Assembly: GCA_017472105.1 (NCBI GenBank)
Contig: JAFUQY010000442.1
Coordinates: 1-5,388 of the forward strand
Direction: 5' to 3'
DNA: 5,388 nucleotides
Source: Clostridia bacterium
Lineage (GTDB): Bacteria > Bacillota_A > Clostridia > Oscillospirales > CAG-272
Made by a program: the position numbers and the translations under genes. This document shows positions 1 through 5,388 of the stretch, piece by piece; the first letter of the stretch is position 1; each line of letters starts with the position of its first letter. The notes under the pieces are model-generated. The model worked only from the letters and a program-made list of their open reading frames with translations. It ran no database searches and was not told the DNA's origin.

Positions 1-767
1 ACGGTCTGTCCACTCCTCAGCTTGAAGAAGAAATGGGCGGCGAATACACCGTTATCAACCTCGGTATCCATGCAAATACTCCCGCAGTCTTCTTCATGGA
101 TCTCGTTTCCGCTTACACCAAGGAAGGCGACCTCGTCATCAATGCTCCCGAACCGATGCACGAACAGTGGGGCTCCGTTTCCTTCAACTCCACCATGTGG
201 GGTATCCTTGAGTGCAACCTCGGCGCGGTTTCGAAGGTTGACGTCAGCGTTTACGACGGCTTCTACTCTTCCTTTGCGTCCTTCAACCAGACCCGTTCCT
301 GGTTCGATACCGGACGAGGCTACGACTGGCATGACTCCAACTCCGACCATTACGGTGACCTCAATTACTACCGTGAACTGATGCCCGAAGACTGGATCAC
401 CTACGTCAACGGCGTTCAGGACTTCAGCGTTACCAACTGCCACAACAAGAAGAACATCAAGAACTTCAACTACGGTGTTGAAAAGATCACGGCATCCGGT
501 GCAACCGCGCTCATGACCTTCTCTCCGATCAACATCAACATTCTCTCCGAAAAATCCCTTCAGAAGGATTACCGTCTCAACTATCAGGAATCTGCCGACG
601 AAAAGTTTGACAGCATCCTGATCTCCGAGGTGGATGACTACATCATGTCCGGTGCGTACTTCTCCAACACCGACCTTCACCCGAACACCCCCGGTACCGA
701 AATCCGTACCGCTCAGCTCGCGGAAGACATCAAGGCTTACCTTGCTGATCCGTCCAGCTACAATTGA
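1..767 (+). CDS. SGNH/GDSL-hydrolase-like exported protein, 5'-truncated by window edge
   Basis: The reading frame is open from position 3 to a TGA at 765-767, which is followed in frame by a second TGA (768-770). An internal ATG at 33 exists, but the frame continues upstream of it. Alignment with the next gene shows that the first visible residues (GLSTPQLEEE) correspond to residues 67-76 of that protein, so about 65 N-terminal residues, including the signal peptide and the nucleophile-serine block, lie outside the window. Shared landmarks are an N-L-G block II (VINLG), a KEGDLVINAPE strand matching EEGDVVIVAPE, an FSP segment, and a C-terminal FSNTDLHPN block with the putative catalytic His at 678-680. 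Unlike its paralog it has Asn, not Asp, four residues before that His, and it ends soon after this block with no leucine-rich repeat domain. SGNH proteins of this kind often modify surface polymers, but the substrate cannot be read from the sequence. The family assignment rests on motifs and paralogy only. Confidence 0.8.
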   Translation, partial: GLSTPQLEEEMGGEYTVINLGIHANTPAVFFMDLVSAYTKEGDLVINAPEPMHEQWGSVSFNSTMWGILECNLGAVSKVDVSVYDGFYSSFASFNQTRSWFDTGRGYDWHDSNSDHYGDLNYYRELMPEDWITYVNGVQDFSVTNCHNKKNIKNFNYGVEKITASGATALMTFSPININILSEKSLQKDYRLNYQESADEKFDSILISEVDDYIMSGAYFSNTDLHPNTPGTEIRTAQLAEDIKAYLADPSSYN

Positions 768-785: not shown

Positions 786-2234
786 ATGAAAAAGACAATC
801 TGCATCGTTCTCGCGTTCATTCTGGTGCTGCTCCTGCCCGTCGGCGTTCTTGCCGTACTGGATGTCGCGATTCCCGCACAGTACGATCAGTCCTTCCTTG
901 CCGGTCTGGCGCTGAAGTACGATCTGATTAAAAACGAATCCTCTCCCAAGCTCGTTATCATCGGCGGTTCCAGTGCGGCGTTCGGCCTTGACACGGAACT
1001 GCTGGAAGAGCATCTTCCCTACGAAGTGGTCAACTTCGGTCTGTACGCTACCCTCGGCACCAAGGTCATGATGGACCTCGCGTCTGACTACATCGAAGAA
1101 GGCGACGTTGTGATCGTGGCTCCCGAGCTTGACCCGCAGACCTTCTCCCTGTACTTCAACGCACAGTCCGTATGGCAGGCTGCGGAAAGCGACAAGTCCA
1201 TCCTCTCCGGCGTGGCATCCGACAACATGGGCGACATGCTCGGCGGCTACTGGAAGTACATTGCCGGCAAGTTCTCCAGCTATCAGAAGAACACACCCGA
1301 TCCGACCGGCGTTTACAGCCTCTCCGCGATCGACGCGAACGGTGAAATTGACTACGAACGCACCGAAAACATCATGGCACTCGGCTACGACCCGAACATG
1401 ATGATTAATCTGAACGACAGTCTGATGGATTCCGCGTTCATTGACTACGTAAACGACTTCACTGCTGCCTGCGAAAAGAAGGGCGCTGTCTGCTACTTCA
1501 GCTTCTCTCCGACCAACAAGGCGGCTCTCTCCGAAACCAACACGGAATCGACCATCCTTGCGTTCTACGACAAGCTCGCGAAGCAGCTCGACTGCGAAGT
1601 CATCAGCAATATCAACGACTGCCTCTACGATCAGGCTTACTTCTACGACACCAACTTCCACCTGAACGACACCGGCGTGATCGCGCACAGCATTACCCTG
1701 ATCCGCGACCTGAAGCGTGTGCTCGGTGACAATGCGGTGAATACCCTCGAAGTTCCCGAACCGCCGCAGCCCGGTACCTCTGCTGTTGTCGGTGAAGACG
1801 CAACTGTTTCCGAAGAACGGGAAGATATGAGTGCTCTGTTCACCTACGGCGAGTTTGCAAACGGCAGAATGATTACCGGTGTGACCGACGAAGGCAAGGC
1901 AAAGGAAATCCTCTACACGCCCGCGGCTTATGACGGCGTTGCTGTTCTCGCAATTGCGGACGGCGCGTTCGATGGCTGTCAGGCTGCTGAGATTTACCTG
2001 AATCCCTCCATCATTCAGCTTTACGACGGACTCTTCAAGAACTGCCCGAACCTCGAAAAGGTTCACATTGAACAGCCCATCGCGGCAAAGCTTGCAGTCG
2101 GTAAGAATCTCATGGACGGTGCAAACGACACGGTTCGTCTGGTTCACTCCACTCTTGAAGGCTTCGGCGACTACTACAACAACTACAGCTGGCAGGACTA
2201 CGCCGACCTCATGGAAATCGCCAACATGAACTAA
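786..2234 (+). CDS. Exported SGNH-hydrolase-like protein with C-terminal LRR_5 (BspA-type) domain
   Basis: This is a complete 482-residue protein. Residues 1-25 are a Lys-Lys start plus a hydrophobic segment, either a signal peptide (possible cleavage after the A23 of GVLA) or an uncleaved anchor. Residues 55-310 form an SGNH/GDSL-like domain: LVIIGGSSAAFGLD at 56-69 is the nucleophile block (Ser62 favoured, Ser63 possible), VVNFG at 81-85 resembles block II, and FYDTNFHLN at 286-294 is the block V equivalent with His292 and Asp288. The Asp-to-His spacing is one longer than the classical DxxH, so the triad is a proposal. A Pro/Glu-rich linker (about 320-347) leads to residues 375-431, whose repeats ADGAFDGC and DGLFKNCPNLEKVHI are typical of LRR_5/BspA-like repeats. 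The tail is Tyr/Asn rich and lacks an LPXTG signal. The domain order suggests an extracytoplasmic, surface-acting enzyme with a binding module, perhaps in polysaccharide or teichoic-acid acyl modification, as for DltD or AlgJ relatives. That role is inference. It is paralogous to the gene just upstream. Confidence 0.88.
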   Translation: MKKTICIVLAFILVLLLPVGVLAVLDVAIPAQYDQSFLAGLALKYDLIKNESSPKLVIIGGSSAAFGLDTELLEEHLPYEVVNFGLYATLGTKVMMDLASDYIEEGDVVIVAPELDPQTFSLYFNAQSVWQAAESDKSILSGVASDNMGDMLGGYWKYIAGKFSSYQKNTPDPTGVYSLSAIDANGEIDYERTENIMALGYDPNMMINLNDSLMDSAFIDYVNDFTAACEKKGAVCYFSFSPTNKAALSETNTESTILAFYDKLAKQLDCEVISNINDCLYDQAYFYDTNFHLNDTGVIAHSITLIRDLKRVLGDNAVNTLEVPEPPQPGTSAVVGEDATVSEEREDMSALFTYGEFANGRMITGVTDEGKAKEILYTPAAYDGVAVLAIADGAFDGCQAAEIYLNPSIIQLYDGLFKNCPNLEKVHIEQPIAAKLAVGKNLMDGANDTVRLVHSTLEGFGDYYNNYSWQDYADLMEIANMN

Positions 2235-2239
2235 TCGGT

Positions 2240-2389
2240 GCGGGGCTGCCCCCGCTGGCATACCGGCGCTATTGAAGCTGTGATTTGAACAAGTCCCACG
2301 ACCTTCCGCTGCGCTGATGCAGTGCTAGGGCACTAAGTTTTATCTATCAAATACAGAAAACCGTTATCTCATGTGGGATAGCGGTTTTT
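2240..2389 (+). repeat. 3'-end element, copy L (about 150 nt, inverted relative to copy R)
   Basis: It begins 5 nt after the TAA of the SGNH-LRR gene and runs to the terminator T-tract. Read on the plus strand it aligns with the minus strand of 2561-2409. Over 2240-2322, 67 of 83 positions match with one 2-nt gap; the next 34 nt match at about half of positions with no gap; the terminator matches at about 27 of 33. Visible structure: a GC hairpin GCGGGG-CTGC-CCCCGC (2240-2255); a 5-bp hairpin with loop GAAC (2282-2295); a perfectly conserved block TCCCACGACCTTCCGC (2294-2309); a GCTG-ATG-CAGT mini-hairpin (2313-2323); AGTGC-TAGG-GCACT, found only in this copy; then the terminator. It contains no coding frame. 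It may be a structured 3' UTR, a 3'-derived small RNA, or a MITE/REP-like dispersed repeat. I do not recognise a named RNA family. Confidence 0.85.
2357..2389 (+). terminator. Intrinsic terminator of the plus-strand SGNH operon
   Basis: AAAACCGTTATC (2357-2368) pairs with GATAGCGGTTTT (2377-2388) in a 12-bp stem with one T-G wobble (2364/2381) and an 8-nt loop. The stem runs into TTTTT then CTTG. On the opposite strand the stem is followed by only four T, so it works best on the plus strand. The hairpin is related in sequence to the minus-strand terminator. Confidence 0.88.
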
Positions 2390-2408
2390 CTTGTGTCTGT
2401 TGGAATAC

Positions 2409-2442
2409 AAAAAAGCCGTTACCCAAGTCAGATAACGGCTTT
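2409..2442 (-). terminator. Intrinsic terminator of the minus-strand ABC exporter operon
   Basis: On the minus strand AAAGCCGTTA (2442-2433) pairs perfectly with TAACGGCTTT (2421-2412) around an 11-nt loop. The stem is followed by an uninterrupted run of six T (2414-2409, partly within the stem). Compared with the plus-strand terminator, one stem pair is changed from A-T to G-C on both sides, so pairing is kept. On the plus strand the tail is TTTCTTC, which might give weak bidirectional activity. Confidence 0.9.
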
Positions 2443-2561
2443 CTTCACTTGATTCACTGAACTCAGCCAACTCAAGCTGCATCAGCAACGCGGAAGGTCG
2501 TGGGAACTGTTCAATCCCCGGCTTCCATAACGCCGAGCCATGCCCGCGGGGGCTTCCCCGC
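2409..2561 (-). repeat. 3'-end element, copy R (about 150 nt, inverted relative to copy L)
   Basis: Read on the minus strand it starts at 2561, directly after the TGA (2564-2562) of the ABC exporter gene, and ends at the T-tract at 2409. It has the same order as copy L: a GC hairpin GCGGGG-AAGC-CCCCGC (2561-2546) with changes only in the loop; two extra bases plus a variable stretch; a GAAC-loop hairpin (2517-2504), here extendable to 7 bp; the identical 16-nt block (2505-2490); GCTG-ATG-CAGC (2486-2476); a 34-nt spacer of the same length as in copy L; and a homologous terminator. Homology thus covers the complete 3' flank of both converging genes, leaving about 19 nt in the centre (2390-2408) unassigned. 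The element could act as RNA or be a repeat that inserts at gene ends. Genome copy number is unknown from this window. Confidence 0.85.
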
Positions 2562-4514
2562 TCAGGTTTCGATGCCGGCGAATTGGTTTTGGTAGAGGCT
2601 GTGGTAGACGCCCTGCTTCGCGAGGAGCTCGTCGTGATTGCCGGCTTCCATCACAGTGCCGTCCTTCATTACAATGATGATGTCGGCGTCACGGATCGTG
2701 GAAAGACGGTGCGCAATAATCAGACTGGTGCGGTTCTTCATCAGAGCAACCATCGCCTGCTGAATGTGCATTTCGGTTCTCGTGTCAACGGAGGATGTCG
2801 CTTCGTCCAGAATCAGAATCTTCGGATCCGCCAGTACCGCACGGGCAATGGACAGAAGCTGACGCTGACCCTGGCTGAGGTTACTGCCCCCTTCCGCGAG
2901 AATCGTGCCGTAGCCTTCGGGCAGACGGGAGATGAACTCGTGCGCTTCCGCCATGTCCGCCGCCTGCTCAATTTCGCTCTGTTCCGCGTCCAGCTTGCCG
3001 TACTTGATGTTGTTTCCGATCGTGTCGTGGAACAGAACGGTGTCCTGAAGTACAATCGCAATCGCACTGCGGAGGGTTTCCTTCGGAATGTCGTTGATGT
3101 TGATGCCGTCGATCTTGATTTCACCCGCATCCACGTCGTAGAATCTCGTCAGCAGGTTTACAACGGTCGTCTTGCCGGAGCCGGTTGCACCTACGAGCGC
3201 GATCTTCTGACCGGGCTTGACCTTCAGATTGAAGTCGTGAAGCACCTGCTTGCCGGGAATGTAGGAGAAGTCGATGTGGTTGAACTCGATCTCGCCCTTG
3301 ATTTCATCAACCTTGATCGGGTTGGTGCCTTCGTCCAGTTCGTTCGGAGTCTCGAGAATCGTGAAGACGCGTTCCGCACCTGCAATCGCGGTCAGAATGC
3401 TTGCGTACTGGTTGGAAATCTGGTTGATCGGCTGGGAAAGCTGACGGGAGTACTGGAGAATCGCCTGAATGTCACCGACGGAAATCGCGCCCTTCATAGT
3501 GAAGAATACGCCTGCCGCCGCAACGATGAGGTAGTTCAGGTTGTTGATGATGTTGTTTGCGGGACCCATCAGACCGCCCCAGACGTTCGCACGGATACTG
3601 CACTTGCGGAATTCTTCACTGATTTTCGCAAATTCCTCGCATGCGTCGTCTTCCTTGCCGTACGCGATGACGGTCTTGAAGCCGGTGACCATTTCTTCCA
3701 CCTGCGTGTTCATCTGTCCGAGAAGAACCTGCTTCTGCACGAAGTATTTCCGCATGAATTTGGAGAGGTTCATGGAAACGATCACGGTCAGCGGAATTGT
3801 AATCAGGGAGATGATTGCCATCCGCCAGTCGTAGTAGATCAGCATCGCGAAGGCGCCGATCAGGGTCAGGAACGCGGAAATCAGCGATGTGATCGACGAG
3901 GAGATCGTCATGGAGATGTTGTCGACGTCGTTGGTCATACGGGACATGATGTCGCCGTGCGCGTGGGTGTCGGTGTATCCGATCGGGAGGAAGGAAATCT
4001 TGTCAAACAGGTCCTTCCGCATGGTGTAAACGGTGGTCTGGGAGATCTTCGTGGATGCAAATCCCTGACAGAGCTGGATCACCGCGCTGAAAATGTACAC
4101 GATGCCCATGAGAACGAGGGTTTCGATGAGGGTATCGAAGTCCACGTTCAGCTTGCCGGCGGACAGGGTGATGGCGTCGATGGCTTTCCCCTGTAAATTC
4201 GGGATGGTCAGGTTCAGGAAAGTCGAAATGATCGTCGTGACCATAATCAGGAACACGAGATACTTGCTCTTGCCGATGTATTTCACGAGCTTGGCGACGG
4301 TCGCCTTGGCATTCTTCGGCTTTTCGCGCACCATGTTCCTGCCGTGAGGACCGCGGGGAGCGTCATTGTTCTTCTTCATCAGATCGCGGAGCTCGTCTGC
4401 GGACAGTTCCTTGTTCTTTTCCCCGGGTTTTCCGCCCGGTTTGCCCGCCATCGGAGGCATTCCGCCGTTTTTCGGGGGCATCGGAGGCATTCCGCCGTTC
4501 ATGTTCTCAGCCAT
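2562..4514 (-). CDS. Heterodimeric ABC exporter, consensus-site subunit (EfrB/TM288-like), TMD-NBD
   Basis: This 650-residue protein is an export half-transporter. Residues 1-80 are an unusual cytosolic leader: Met/Pro/Gly-rich NGGMPPM repeats, a GKPGGKPGEK stretch, then a charged helix-like segment. Residues 84-375 form the membrane domain, with hydrophobic helices near 86-105, 130-152, 208-228, 231-250 and 322-340 and the intracellular loop motif TNDVDN (194-199). The nucleotide-binding domain has the A-loop Tyr418, Walker A GATGSGKT (442-449), Q-loop Gln490, signature LSQGQ (546-550, Gln in place of Gly), Walker B ILILD (566-570), catalytic Glu571 and switch His602. The full Glu/His set with a degenerate signature is the hallmark of the TM288/EfrB/MdlB-like partner. 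ATG at 4514 is preferred because an excellent Shine-Dalgarno lies 8 nt before it; a GTG at 4523 lies inside that site. It overlaps the stop of the upstream subunit by 8 nt. The substrate is unknown: drugs, peptides or lipids are all possible for the family. Confidence 0.95.
   Translation of the reverse strand: MAENMNGGMPPMPPKNGGMPPMAGKPGGKPGEKNKELSADELRDLMKKNNDAPRGPHGRNMVREKPKNAKATVAKLVKYIGKSKYLVFLIMVTTIISTFLNLTIPNLQGKAIDAITLSAGKLNVDFDTLIETLVLMGIVYIFSAVIQLCQGFASTKISQTTVYTMRKDLFDKISFLPIGYTDTHAHGDIMSRMTNDVDNISMTISSSITSLISAFLTLIGAFAMLIYYDWRMAIISLITIPLTVIVSMNLSKFMRKYFVQKQVLLGQMNTQVEEMVTGFKTVIAYGKEDDACEEFAKISEEFRKCSIRANVWGGLMGPANNIINNLNYLIVAAAGVFFTMKGAISVGDIQAILQYSRQLSQPINQISNQYASILTAIAGAERVFTILETPNELDEGTNPIKVDEIKGEIEFNHIDFSYIPGKQVLHDFNLKVKPGQKIALVGATGSGKTTVVNLLTRFYDVDAGEIKIDGININDIPKETLRSAIAIVLQDTVLFHDTIGNNIKYGKLDAEQSEIEQAADMAEAHEFISRLPEGYGTILAEGGSNLSQGQRQLLSIARAVLADPKILILDEATSSVDTRTEMHIQQAMVALMKNRTSLIIAHRLSTIRDADIIIVMKDGTVMEAGNHDELLAKQGVYHSLYQNQFAGIET
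4449..4499 (-). repeat. Two identical 21-bp in-frame direct repeats coding NGGMPPM
   Basis: Positions 4449-4469 and 4479-4499 are identical over 21 bp with a 30-bp period, and each encodes Asn-Gly-Gly-Met-Pro-Pro-Met near the N-terminus of the exporter subunit. Identity at the DNA level, including third positions, suggests recent duplication or slippage rather than convergent low complexity. Confidence 0.85.
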
Positions 4515-5388
4515 TGATATCACCTCCGTTGTTCTTCATCTGTGAATTGTAAATATCGCGGTATGCGGCACTGGACTGCATCAGGTTGTCGTGATTGTCA
4601 AATGCCGTGATTTTTCCGTTTTCGATGACCGCAATTCTGTCGGCGTGCATGACACTGGCGATACGCTGTGCGATCATGATAACGGTGGTGTCTTCGAATT
4701 CCTCGTTGAGCGCCTTTCTGAGCTTCGCTTCGGTGCTCAGGTCAAGCGCGGAGGTGGAATCGTCGAAAATGATGATCTCCGGATGACGGAGCACGGCGCG
4801 GGAGATTGCCACACGCTGCTTCTGACCGCCGGACAGGGATGCGCCCTTCTCCGCAACGTAGGAGGTATAGCCGTCCTCCATCTTGGAGATGAATTCATCC
4901 GCCTGTGCGATTCTTGCGGCGTTCTGAATTTCTTCCATGGTTGCGTCGTCCTTACCCCAGCGGATATTTTCGTCGATGCCGCCGGAGAACAGCTCGCTCT
5001 TTTGCAGAACAAAGCCGATTTTTGCGCGGAGTGCCTCGAGATCCCACTTTTTCACGTCAACGCCGTCCACGTAAACGGTGCCGGAAACGGTGTCGTAGAA
5101 GCGCGGAATGAGGTTGACAAGGGAGGATTTGCCGGAGCCGGTCGCGCCGATGATGGCAACGGTTTCGCCCTTCTTCACTTCAAAGGAAATGTTGTCGAGA
5201 ACGTTGTTGCCGGCTGCACCCGGATACTTGAAGGATACGTTTTCAAAGCGGACGGTGCCCTTTTCCGTGCCGTTTTCGACGGAGCCGCTGACGATGACCT
5301 GATCGGCTTCGAGAACCTCACGGACACGGGCAGCACAGGCATTACCGCGGGCGATATTCTGGAAGATCATGGAGATCATCATGATGGA
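4507..5388 (-). CDS. Heterodimeric ABC exporter, degenerate-site subunit (EfrA/TM287-like), N-terminus beyond window
   Basis: The frame is open through the window edge: codons for Ser-Ile precede the Met at 5382, so that Met is internal. Visible are the end of the last membrane helix (SIMMISMIFQNIARGNACAARVREVLE) and the whole nucleotide-binding domain. Counting from that Met, there is an A-loop Tyr53, Walker A GATGSGKS (79-86), Q-loop Gln127, canonical signature LSGGQ (183-187) and Walker B IIIFD (203-207). The catalytic Glu is replaced by Asp208 (codon 4761-4759) and the switch His by Gln239 (codon 4668-4666). These two replacements, paired with LSQGQ in the partner, build one degenerate ATP site, while LSGGQ here completes the consensus site with the partner's Glu and His. 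The Gly-Gly-Asp codons at the C-terminus double as the Shine-Dalgarno of the next gene, so translation is probably coupled. About 300 N-terminal residues, with most membrane helices, are outside the window. Confidence 0.95.
   Translation of the reverse strand, partial: SIMMISMIFQNIARGNACAARVREVLEADQVIVSGSVENGTEKGTVRFENVSFKYPGAAGNNVLDNISFEVKKGETVAIIGATGSGKSSLVNLIPRFYDTVSGTVYVDGVDVKKWDLEALRAKIGFVLQKSELFSGGIDENIRWGKDDATMEEIQNAARIAQADEFISKMEDGYTSYVAEKGASLSGGQKQRVAISRAVLRHPEIIIFDDSTSALDLSTEAKLRKALNEEFEDTTVIMIAQRIASVMHADRIAVIENGKITAFDNHDNLMQSSAAYRDIYNSQMKNNGGDING
4519..4527 (-). promoter_or_regulatory. Extended Shine-Dalgarno GGAGGTGAT inside the upstream coding region
   Basis: GGAGGTGAT on the minus strand matches nine consecutive bases of the usual bacterial anti-Shine-Dalgarno complement. 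The GGAGG core ends 8 nt before ATG 4514. It fixes the start of the downstream exporter subunit and is read as Gly-Gly-Asp in the upstream one, whose stop TGA (4509-4507) follows inside ATGGCTGA. Confidence 0.92.

What the first reader, a model, noticed from the sequence alone, without database searches (positions are those of the whole stretch)
2240..2561. Convergent genes share inverted copies of one ~150-nt 3'-end element
The whole gap between the stop codons is two homologous, head-on copies (plus 2240-2389, minus 2561-2409). Both begin at or 5 nt after a stop codon, have the same 34-nt spacer length, and end in related terminators. By hand about 110 of ~150 positions agree. Two unrelated operons carrying the same 3' module suggests a dispersed 3'-UTR element (structured RNA, 3'-derived sRNA, or a MITE/REP that targets gene ends) rather than chance. 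Read through on one strand, the region could fold into a ~320-nt hairpin with the terminators at its tip.
Basis: partly seen in the sequence, partly recalled or inferred. Interest (0 to 1): 0.72.

Follow-up and report, generated by a model that had tools for sequence, protein, structure and literature searches.

The report
REP-like hairpin repeats at gene ends
The gap between two facing genes holds two copies of a small folded DNA repeat that, in related uncultured gut bacteria, is scattered over the chromosome and often begins right behind the last letter of a gene, which suggests a mobile element tied to gene ends.

Summary
In detail: 119 of 149 aligned positions match between the two head-on copies, score 142 against a shuffle maximum of 50. 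They belong to a dispersed repeat family, but the dispersed unit is about 82 nt, not 150. The closest named relative found (goat-colon Clostridia MAG RGIG2226, handle G001) holds 39 copies. Relatives hold diverged copies, at least 38 and 64 in two genomes. Each unit starts with a 6-bp hairpin whose arms covary, followed by a GGCA tag (45 of 51 rows) and a conserved end ATCCCACGA. In the discovery set, 36 of 63 arrays start -3 to +8 nt from the stop of a same-strand gene (5.2% expected); one has the mirrored arrangement. Six more abut tRNA or tmRNA genes. The rule weakens in G454 (6 of 26) and fails in G427 (1 of 44). The terminators are not part of the dispersed unit; here spacer and terminator were additionally copied between the two sides. 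It works like a REP/MITE-type mobile repeat placed at gene 3' ends, but lacks the GTAG/CGTC tag and a linked RAYT. Function and transposase are unknown.

The parts
786..2234 (+). Upstream gene on the plus side: 482-aa protein with a sub-threshold LRR_5 match, homologous to proteins of uncultured Clostridia MAGs; stop TAA 2232-2234
2240..2319 (+). Repeat copy 1 (about 82-nt unit), starting 5 nt after the TAA; TCGGT precedes it
   Evidence: R1 88.6 bits, E 8e-17, but R1 was built with this copy among its 22. Independent support: 27 matches of 2240-2389 in G001 before any model was made
2240..2255 (+). P1 hairpin of copy 1: GCGGGG-CTGC-CCCCGC, followed by TGGCA
   Evidence: fold and family covariation
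2357..2388 (+). Terminator-like hairpin with T-run behind copy 1; not part of the dispersed unit
2411..2443 (-). Terminator-like hairpin with T-run behind copy 2; resembles the plus-side terminator, unlike the sister genome's terminator at this place
2480..2561 (-). Repeat copy 2, starting directly after the TGA at 2564-2562
   Evidence: R1 85.4 bits, E 4e-16 (also a member of the model's seed); 78.8% identical to copy 1 over 85 columns by BLAST
2546..2561 (-). P1 hairpin of copy 2: GCGGGG-AAGC-CCCCGC, followed by GGGCA
2562..4523 (-). Upstream gene on the minus side: ABC transporter, membrane plus ATPase domains, 653 aa

Best explanation
The two copies belong to a dispersed, non-coding, REP-like mobile repeat of uncultured gut Clostridia. 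Shown: the unit is a 6-bp covarying hairpin with an adjacent GGCA/GCCA tag and a conserved end ATCCCACGA. It occurs singly or in head-to-tail arrays. In the discovery genomes taken together its hairpin end usually abuts the 3' end of a gene on the same strand: a stop codon, sometimes a tRNA or tmRNA end. Inferred: copies spread by transposition through an unidentified enzyme. They are inserted, or survive best, right behind the last needed base of a gene, so they become the start of the 3' UTR. There a hairpin at the stop codon could slow ribosome release or protect the mRNA end, as reported for stop-proximal REPs in E. coli. In this window two convergent genes each carry such a copy, and later local inverted copying made spacer and terminator of the two sides alike.
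For: Dispersed copies: 27 DNA matches in G001 and 39 with model R1, whose 22 seeds are mostly G001 copies. Diverged copies: 9 of 59 genomes drawn as relatives of G001 and 18 of 395 family genomes, G001 included each time; one search scored only 13 candidates per genome, so it is a lower bound. Model specificity: R2 at E <= 0.05 over 80 related loci (1.23 Mb) found L035, itself a seed, and one marginal hit; over 34 viral loci, none. P1: 6 of 6 pairs with double changes and 96.4% of cells paired; covariation of the 8 pairs tested (P1 plus 2 loop contacts) 0.350 against 0.108 shuffled and at most 0.097 slid. Position: 36 of 63 arrays at -3..+8 of a same-strand stop against 5.2% expected, 1 of 63 mirrored; binomial 7e-30, which ignores orthologous arrays. 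Per source: G001 17 of 28, G024 6 of 12, G003 4 of 6, G015 2 of 4, G016 2 of 3, G010 1 of 3, G006 0 of 2, G002 0 of 1, G017 and G218 1 of 1, window 2 of 2. Six arrays lie 0 or 1 nt behind tRNA or tmRNA genes. Retention: behind tmRNA in 4 of the 30 genomes shown, behind an NMT1-like gene in 3, phosphofructokinase in 2. Mobility: a 96-nt copy splits an XRE-type HTH gene in G001 and G003, with flanking repeat GAAACGGG in G003 (GATACGGG on the right in G001); the element differs at one site while flanks fall to 42-77% per 60 columns. 3'-UTR setting: terminator-like hairpin within 160 nt of 15 of 25 array ends (23 of the 29 G001 arrays plus the window's two) against 28 of 230 random pieces.
Against: In G427 only 1 of 44 arrays lies at a stop codon (3.9% expected), so gene-end placement is not a property of the whole family. 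Flanking repeats of 8 nt or more occur at 4 of 57 junctions, one of them a tandem module, against a control mean of 0.67 and maximum of 3, so target duplication is weak as a general claim. No transposase is tied to it: Y1_Tnp was not found in G001, G024, G003, G002, G427, G728 and G017, and no copy lies in 15 of the 16 loci fetched around Y1_Tnp and reverse-transcriptase genes (the sixteenth was not tested). The outer stem of the 3' part shows no covariation. Order-wide, 11 of 394 genomes matched, mostly weakly. No expression data exist. The genomes are drafts whose completeness was not told.
Confidence: 0.62

Rival explanations
1. Local inverted duplication only: one 3' end was copied to the other gene, and the likeness has nothing to do with a dispersed family.
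For: Spacer and terminator behind the two copies resemble each other (52 against mean 20, maximum 33 for 23 others), and the window's second terminator matches the sister genome's first (48) rather than its second (19). In the sister genome the plus copy is closest to the minus copy of the same locus, 66% against a median of 52%. Identity between the window copies is similar inside and outside the 82-nt unit.
Against: The first 82 nt occur 39 times in G001. Copy 1 is closer to a copy at another gene of G001 (88.8%) than to copy 2 (75-79%). The sister genome has a diverged copy at the minus-side stop and a degenerate one at the plus-side stop.
Confidence: 0.12
2. A cis-acting 3'-UTR RNA element with a host function (translation termination, mRNA end protection or RNA processing), selected at gene ends, mobility being incidental.
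For: Same-strand placement directly after stop codons and tRNA/tmRNA genes. Covarying hairpin and a possible loop contact. Retention at orthologous genes. Hosts include GroEL (2), EF-G, EF-P, valyl-tRNA synthetase, aldolase, transketolase and glutamine synthetase.
Against: Copies inside an HTH gene and, by eye, upstream of opposite-strand genes; tandem arrays; patchy distribution (18 of 395 family genomes, lower bound); no common pathway seen among host genes.
Confidence: 0.2
3. Insertion aimed at 3' ends by an RNA-based step: element RNA joined to, or reverse-transcribed onto, the 3' end of another RNA and recombined in.
For: Sense orientation near stops, 36 against 1; junctions at stop codons, tRNA/tmRNA ends and, by eye, three terminator T-runs; many hosts are core genes.
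Against: Junctions follow the base before a CCA that appears not to be encoded, so mature CCA-bearing RNA was not the donor. Ordinary mRNAs are not known to end at stop codons. Reverse transcriptase found in only 4 of 8 positive genomes.
Confidence: 0.06

Closest known systems
REP / BIME sequences of E. coli and other bacteria (GTAG- and CGTC-tagged palindromes)
   Same: Short GC-rich palindrome with a conserved tag at one end, many copies, clusters, mostly downstream of coding regions and between convergent or unidirectional genes, some inside genes (PMC3733652, passages). Stop proximity is known too: PMC12306157 (passages) reports that REPs 1-20 nt from ORF ends reduce translation when under 16 nt from the stop, that 446 of 4,072 E. 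coli REPs lie that close, and that an earlier study put 260 of 496 there.
   Different: Tag here is GGCA/GCCA, not GTAG or CGTC; an 82-nt unit with a conserved 3' domain; nearly one orientation relative to the gene; also at tRNA/tmRNA ends; no linked RAYT found.
MITEs such as Correia and RUP elements
   Same: Short, non-coding, dispersed, thought to be moved in trans; some flanking direct repeats here.
   Different: No inverted repeats span the unit, no parent IS found, direct repeats rare. Named from PMC2817692 passages and recall.
BOX elements of Streptococcus pneumoniae
   Same: Modular repeat with tandem sub-modules (recalled; PMC3049150 seen only in a search listing).
   Different: No sequence comparison was made; whether BOX elements sit as close to gene ends was not checked.
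Integron attC sites
   Same: Folded site directly behind the stop codon of a gene, same orientation (recalled; search listing only).
   Different: Copies are scattered at core genes, tRNA and tmRNA rather than in a cassette array; the attC core motif was not searched for.

Membership tests
REP (GTAG/CGTC-tagged) | Short palindrome in many copies, largely extragenic | tested here: met
   P1: 96.4% of cells paired over 51 rows; 39 matches in G001, 64 in G427, 38 in G454
REP (GTAG/CGTC-tagged) | Tetranucleotide GTAG or CGTC at one end of the palindrome | tested here: not met
   0 of 51 rows have GTAG or CGTC, or their complements, directly at either edge of P1; the 3' tag is GGCA in 45, GCCA in 4, GGCG in 2. 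Copies of G427 and G454 were not in this count
REP (GTAG/CGTC-tagged) | RAYT (Y1 transposase) gene in the genome, flanked by the repeat | tested here: not met
   Y1_Tnp found in 4 of 8 and 3 of 6 positive genomes, not in G001 or G427; no copy in the 10 loci around Y1_Tnp genes. Drafts, so absence is not certain
REP (GTAG/CGTC-tagged) | Preferentially downstream of coding regions | tested here: met
   36 of 63 discovery arrays and 6 of 26 in G454 at stop codons; not met in G427 (1 of 44)
MITE | Terminal inverted repeats shared with a full-length IS | tested here: inconclusive
   No inverted repeat spans the unit on inspection of A2; a parent IS was not searched for beyond Y1_Tnp and RVT_1
MITE | Target-site duplication | tested here: inconclusive
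   8-nt repeats at three junctions plus one tandem-module case of 57; control mean 0.67, maximum 3
Known structured RNA family (Rfam 15) | Covariance-model match above gathering score | tested here: not met
   None on the element in the window or in 9 loci; sub-threshold matches are at E 0.05 or worse
Integron attC | Core recombination sequence and a cassette array with integrase | not tested
   Only the scattered placement was seen
Intrinsic terminator | Hairpin followed by a run of T | tested here: not met
   P1 is followed by the GGCA-type tag, not T; terminator-like hairpins lie downstream where found

The most novel reading that the evidence does not exclude
A bacterial mobile element that recognises gene 3' ends as such: it inserts in sense orientation right behind the last needed base of unrelated genes (stop codon, tRNA or tmRNA end, terminator), independent of sequence, through a targeting step coupled to transcription or translation.
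Probability: 0.15. Interest if true: 0.85.

Novelty: new variant of a known kind. Interest (0 to 1): 0.5.

Why it matters
Repeats beside stop codons are known from REPs, but here 27 of the 36 stop-linked arrays start within -1 to +2 nt of the stop, nearly always in sense, and others sit at tRNA and tmRNA ends. Either insertion is aimed at gene ends, or selection holds a structured RNA there; both can be tested. It would also give gut Clostridia a REP-like family with a tag other than GTAG or CGTC, and may explain some broken contigs in their MAGs.

Tried and rejected
An antisense-tRNA origin was considered, because TTGAAC...CCCACGACCTTCCGC in the window copies looks like an antisense T-arm; ARAGORN found no tRNA in the window and Rfam none in 2200-2600, and the TTGAAC part is not kept in other copies. 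An HDV-like self-cleaving ribozyme was rejected by inspection: the first six bases pair with bases 13-18 as a plain hairpin.

The exact pattern TGAACANNTCCCACGACCTTCC had no match in genome contigs, being too specific to the window. The 34 viral matches of a shorter pattern share only the motif and no model match.

An RNA-3'-end-capture origin was weighed and marked down, because tmRNA and tRNA junctions precede a CCA that is apparently not encoded. A RAYT link was sought without success. A reverse-transcriptase link was inconclusive. A general target-site duplication was not established.

Rows dropped or not used: one truncated copy of the 23 was left out of A2; 4 of the 55 candidates were left out of A4 (L153:1417, L162:1596, L180:1519, L153:1231); one contig-edge array (G001 C186) of the 64 was left out of the 63, arrays with less than 40 nt upstream and repeated contexts were removed before the 70; 6 of 29 G001 arrays were not used for the terminator count; 3 of the 42 upstream proteins were not scanned.

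Literature: searches listed no paper that I recognised as describing this family; most subscription journals are not held.

Full report
What is in the window. The window comes from an uncultured Clostridia MAG: one homologue, named only as Clostridia bacterium (IJ037_01460), is 100% identical over 86% of the 482-aa protein. No whole genome is held for the window. A plus-strand gene (786-2234) and a minus-strand ABC-transporter gene (2562-4523) converge. The gap between their stops holds two head-on copies, 119 of 149 aligned positions identical, far above shuffles. Both fold better than shuffles (z -3.2 and -4.1), and the whole gap read through would form one long hairpin.

It is a dispersed repeat. 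The genome of the closest relative found (G001, reached through L035, goat-colon isolate RGIG2226) gave 27 DNA matches to 2240-2389. Of these, 26 fall within query positions 1-87, and one, the orthologous terminator, covers 112-150. A covariance model from 22 copies, most of them from G001, found 39. Of 59 genomes drawn as relatives of G001, G001 included, 9 have matches. A second model (R2) of the 63-nt core from 51 copies found 17 copies in G024, 8 in G010 and 6 in G003. It was positive in 11 of 394 genomes of the order, mostly weakly, and in 18 of 395 of the family; both scored only 13 candidates per genome. It gave 64 matches in G427 and 38 in G454, with 150 candidates scored in each. R2 gave L035 (a seed) and one marginal hit in 80 related loci (1.23 Mb), and none in 34 viral loci.

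Anatomy. The unit starts with hairpin P1, followed by a tag that reads GGCA in 45 of 51 rows, GCCA in 4 and GGCG in 2. Then come CTCGGCG, a variable middle and a conserved end ATCCCACGA; in G001-type copies CCTTCCGCTGCGCTGAT follows. All six P1 pairs show compensated changes; 96.4% of its cells are paired. A two-pair contact between the P1 loop and the tag is suggested by four related copies with GG/CC in place of GC/GC, which is thin evidence. The outer stem of the 3' part is almost invariant, so covariation says nothing for it. Copies occur in head-to-tail arrays, and partial leading modules are common.

Position. In the discovery set (window, G001, G002, G003, G006, G010, G015, G016, G017, G024, G218), 36 of 63 arrays start between -3 and +8 nt of the stop of a same-strand ORF of at least 100 aa. 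The mode is +1, then 0, and 27 of the 36 lie at -1 to +2. About 5.2% of non-coding positions would qualify, and the mirrored arrangement occurs once. Two of the 36 are the window's own copies, which prompted the search. By eye, five more arrays are led by a partial module that itself starts at or next to the stop, and one abuts a short ORF at a contig edge. Six lie 0 or 1 nt behind tRNA-Val, tRNA-Met or tmRNA genes, and three, by eye, follow terminator T-runs. In these tmRNA genes CCA seems not to be encoded, judging from relatives, so the junction is the last encoded base or the next. The check in genomes not used to form the idea is mixed: G454 6 of 26 (1.8% expected), G427 1 of 44 (3.9% expected). 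In G427 many hairpins are embedded in other repeats.

Host genes. Pfam scans of 39 of 42 upstream proteins (last 330 aa at most) gave a family at 1e-8 for 33. They include GroEL twice, EF-G, EF-P, valyl-tRNA synthetase, fructose-bisphosphate aldolase, transketolase, phosphofructokinase, glutamine synthetase, iron hydrogenase, an RlmH-type methyltransferase and transporters. No shared pathway is apparent. The copy behind tmRNA is kept in G002, G003, G006 and G016, 4 of the 30 genomes shown. The copy behind an NMT1-like gene is kept in G003, G016 and G015, and behind phosphofructokinase in G003 and G016 (the G016 proteins were matched by their ends, not scanned). So copies persist at orthologous gene ends.

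Mobility. In G001 and G003 a 96-nt copy splits an XRE-type HTH gene after VSKWETG and shifts the frame. GAAACGGG flanks it on both sides in G003; in G001 the right copy reads GATACGGG. The element differs at one site between the genomes, while the flanking alignment falls to 42-77% per 60 columns. Other 8-nt direct repeats flank one copy in G016 and one in G001. Over 57 junctions the excess is small (4 against a control mean of 0.67, maximum 3; one of the four is a tandem module). No copy was found in 15 of the 16 loci fetched around Y1 transposase and reverse-transcriptase genes; the sixteenth was not tested.

The pair in this window. Copy 1 is closer to a copy at another gene in G001 (88.8%) than to copy 2 (75-79%), so the pair is not simply one unit duplicated on the spot. 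At the same locus of G001 the minus side has a diverged copy found by a profile not built from it, and the plus side has a degenerate one recognised only by alignment. Yet spacer and terminator of the two window copies resemble each other strongly (52 against mean 20, maximum 33 for 23 others), and the second terminator resembles the sister genome's first (48), not its second (19). The best reading is two family members at two gene ends, plus later local inverted copying of spacer and terminator.

What it works like, and membership. REPs are tagged palindromes mostly downstream of genes; GTAG REP ends often supply the TAG stop of neighbouring ORFs (PMC3733652, passages), and REP-RAYT units are described in PMC2817692 (passages). 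[quoted passage not shown] 446 of 4,072 E. coli REPs are that close by one count and 260 of 496 by an earlier one (PMC12306157, passages; the underlying study was not read). So stop proximity by itself is not new. This family works like a REP but fails two defining features, the GTAG/CGTC tag and the linked RAYT, so it is not filed as a REP. It reaches no Rfam gathering score.

What is shown and what is inferred. Shown: the family, P1, the sense gene-end placement in the discovery genomes, the exception G427, orthologous retention, and the split HTH gene. Inferred: transposition as the way of spread, the reason for gene-end placement, and any effect on translation or mRNA ends. The idea that insertion itself is aimed at gene ends remains open.

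Noticed in passing
L155 (G001 C222:39924-40004) and L163 (G003 C20:9742-9822): Nearly identical 96-nt copies split homologous XRE-type HTH genes; the downstream reading frame stays open to the end of the stretch translated, roughly 195 codons, in both. Independent homing, recent transfer or some form of bypass are all possible.
   Followed up: partly
L131 (G001 C138) and L156 (G001 C197): The upstream reading frame runs into the element and ends at a stop inside it; in C138 the P1 loop reads GGTAAGC and supplies TAA while P1 stays paired.
   Followed up: no
G427, many contig ends: At least 64 copies, many within 400 nt of contig ends, suggesting that the arrays break the assembly; hairpins of the GGGAAGCCC+GGGCA and GGGAAGGCCC+GGCCA types occur side by side.
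   Followed up: partly
L165, L171, L173 (G016, G003, G015): Orthologous copies behind an NMT1-like gene carry an extra GCCTCCGGCAGC stretch in the 3' part.
   Followed up: no
L232 (G006 C46:59648): A copy directly follows an unannotated stretch ending CTCTCTCCACCA that neither ARAGORN nor Rfam names; possibly a small RNA gene.
   Followed up: partly
window 33-767 and 786-2234: Two adjacent plus-strand genes without a Pfam match over the cut-off; the second has 856 homologues, and of the 120 listed all but the top three are 39-64% identical.
   Followed up: no
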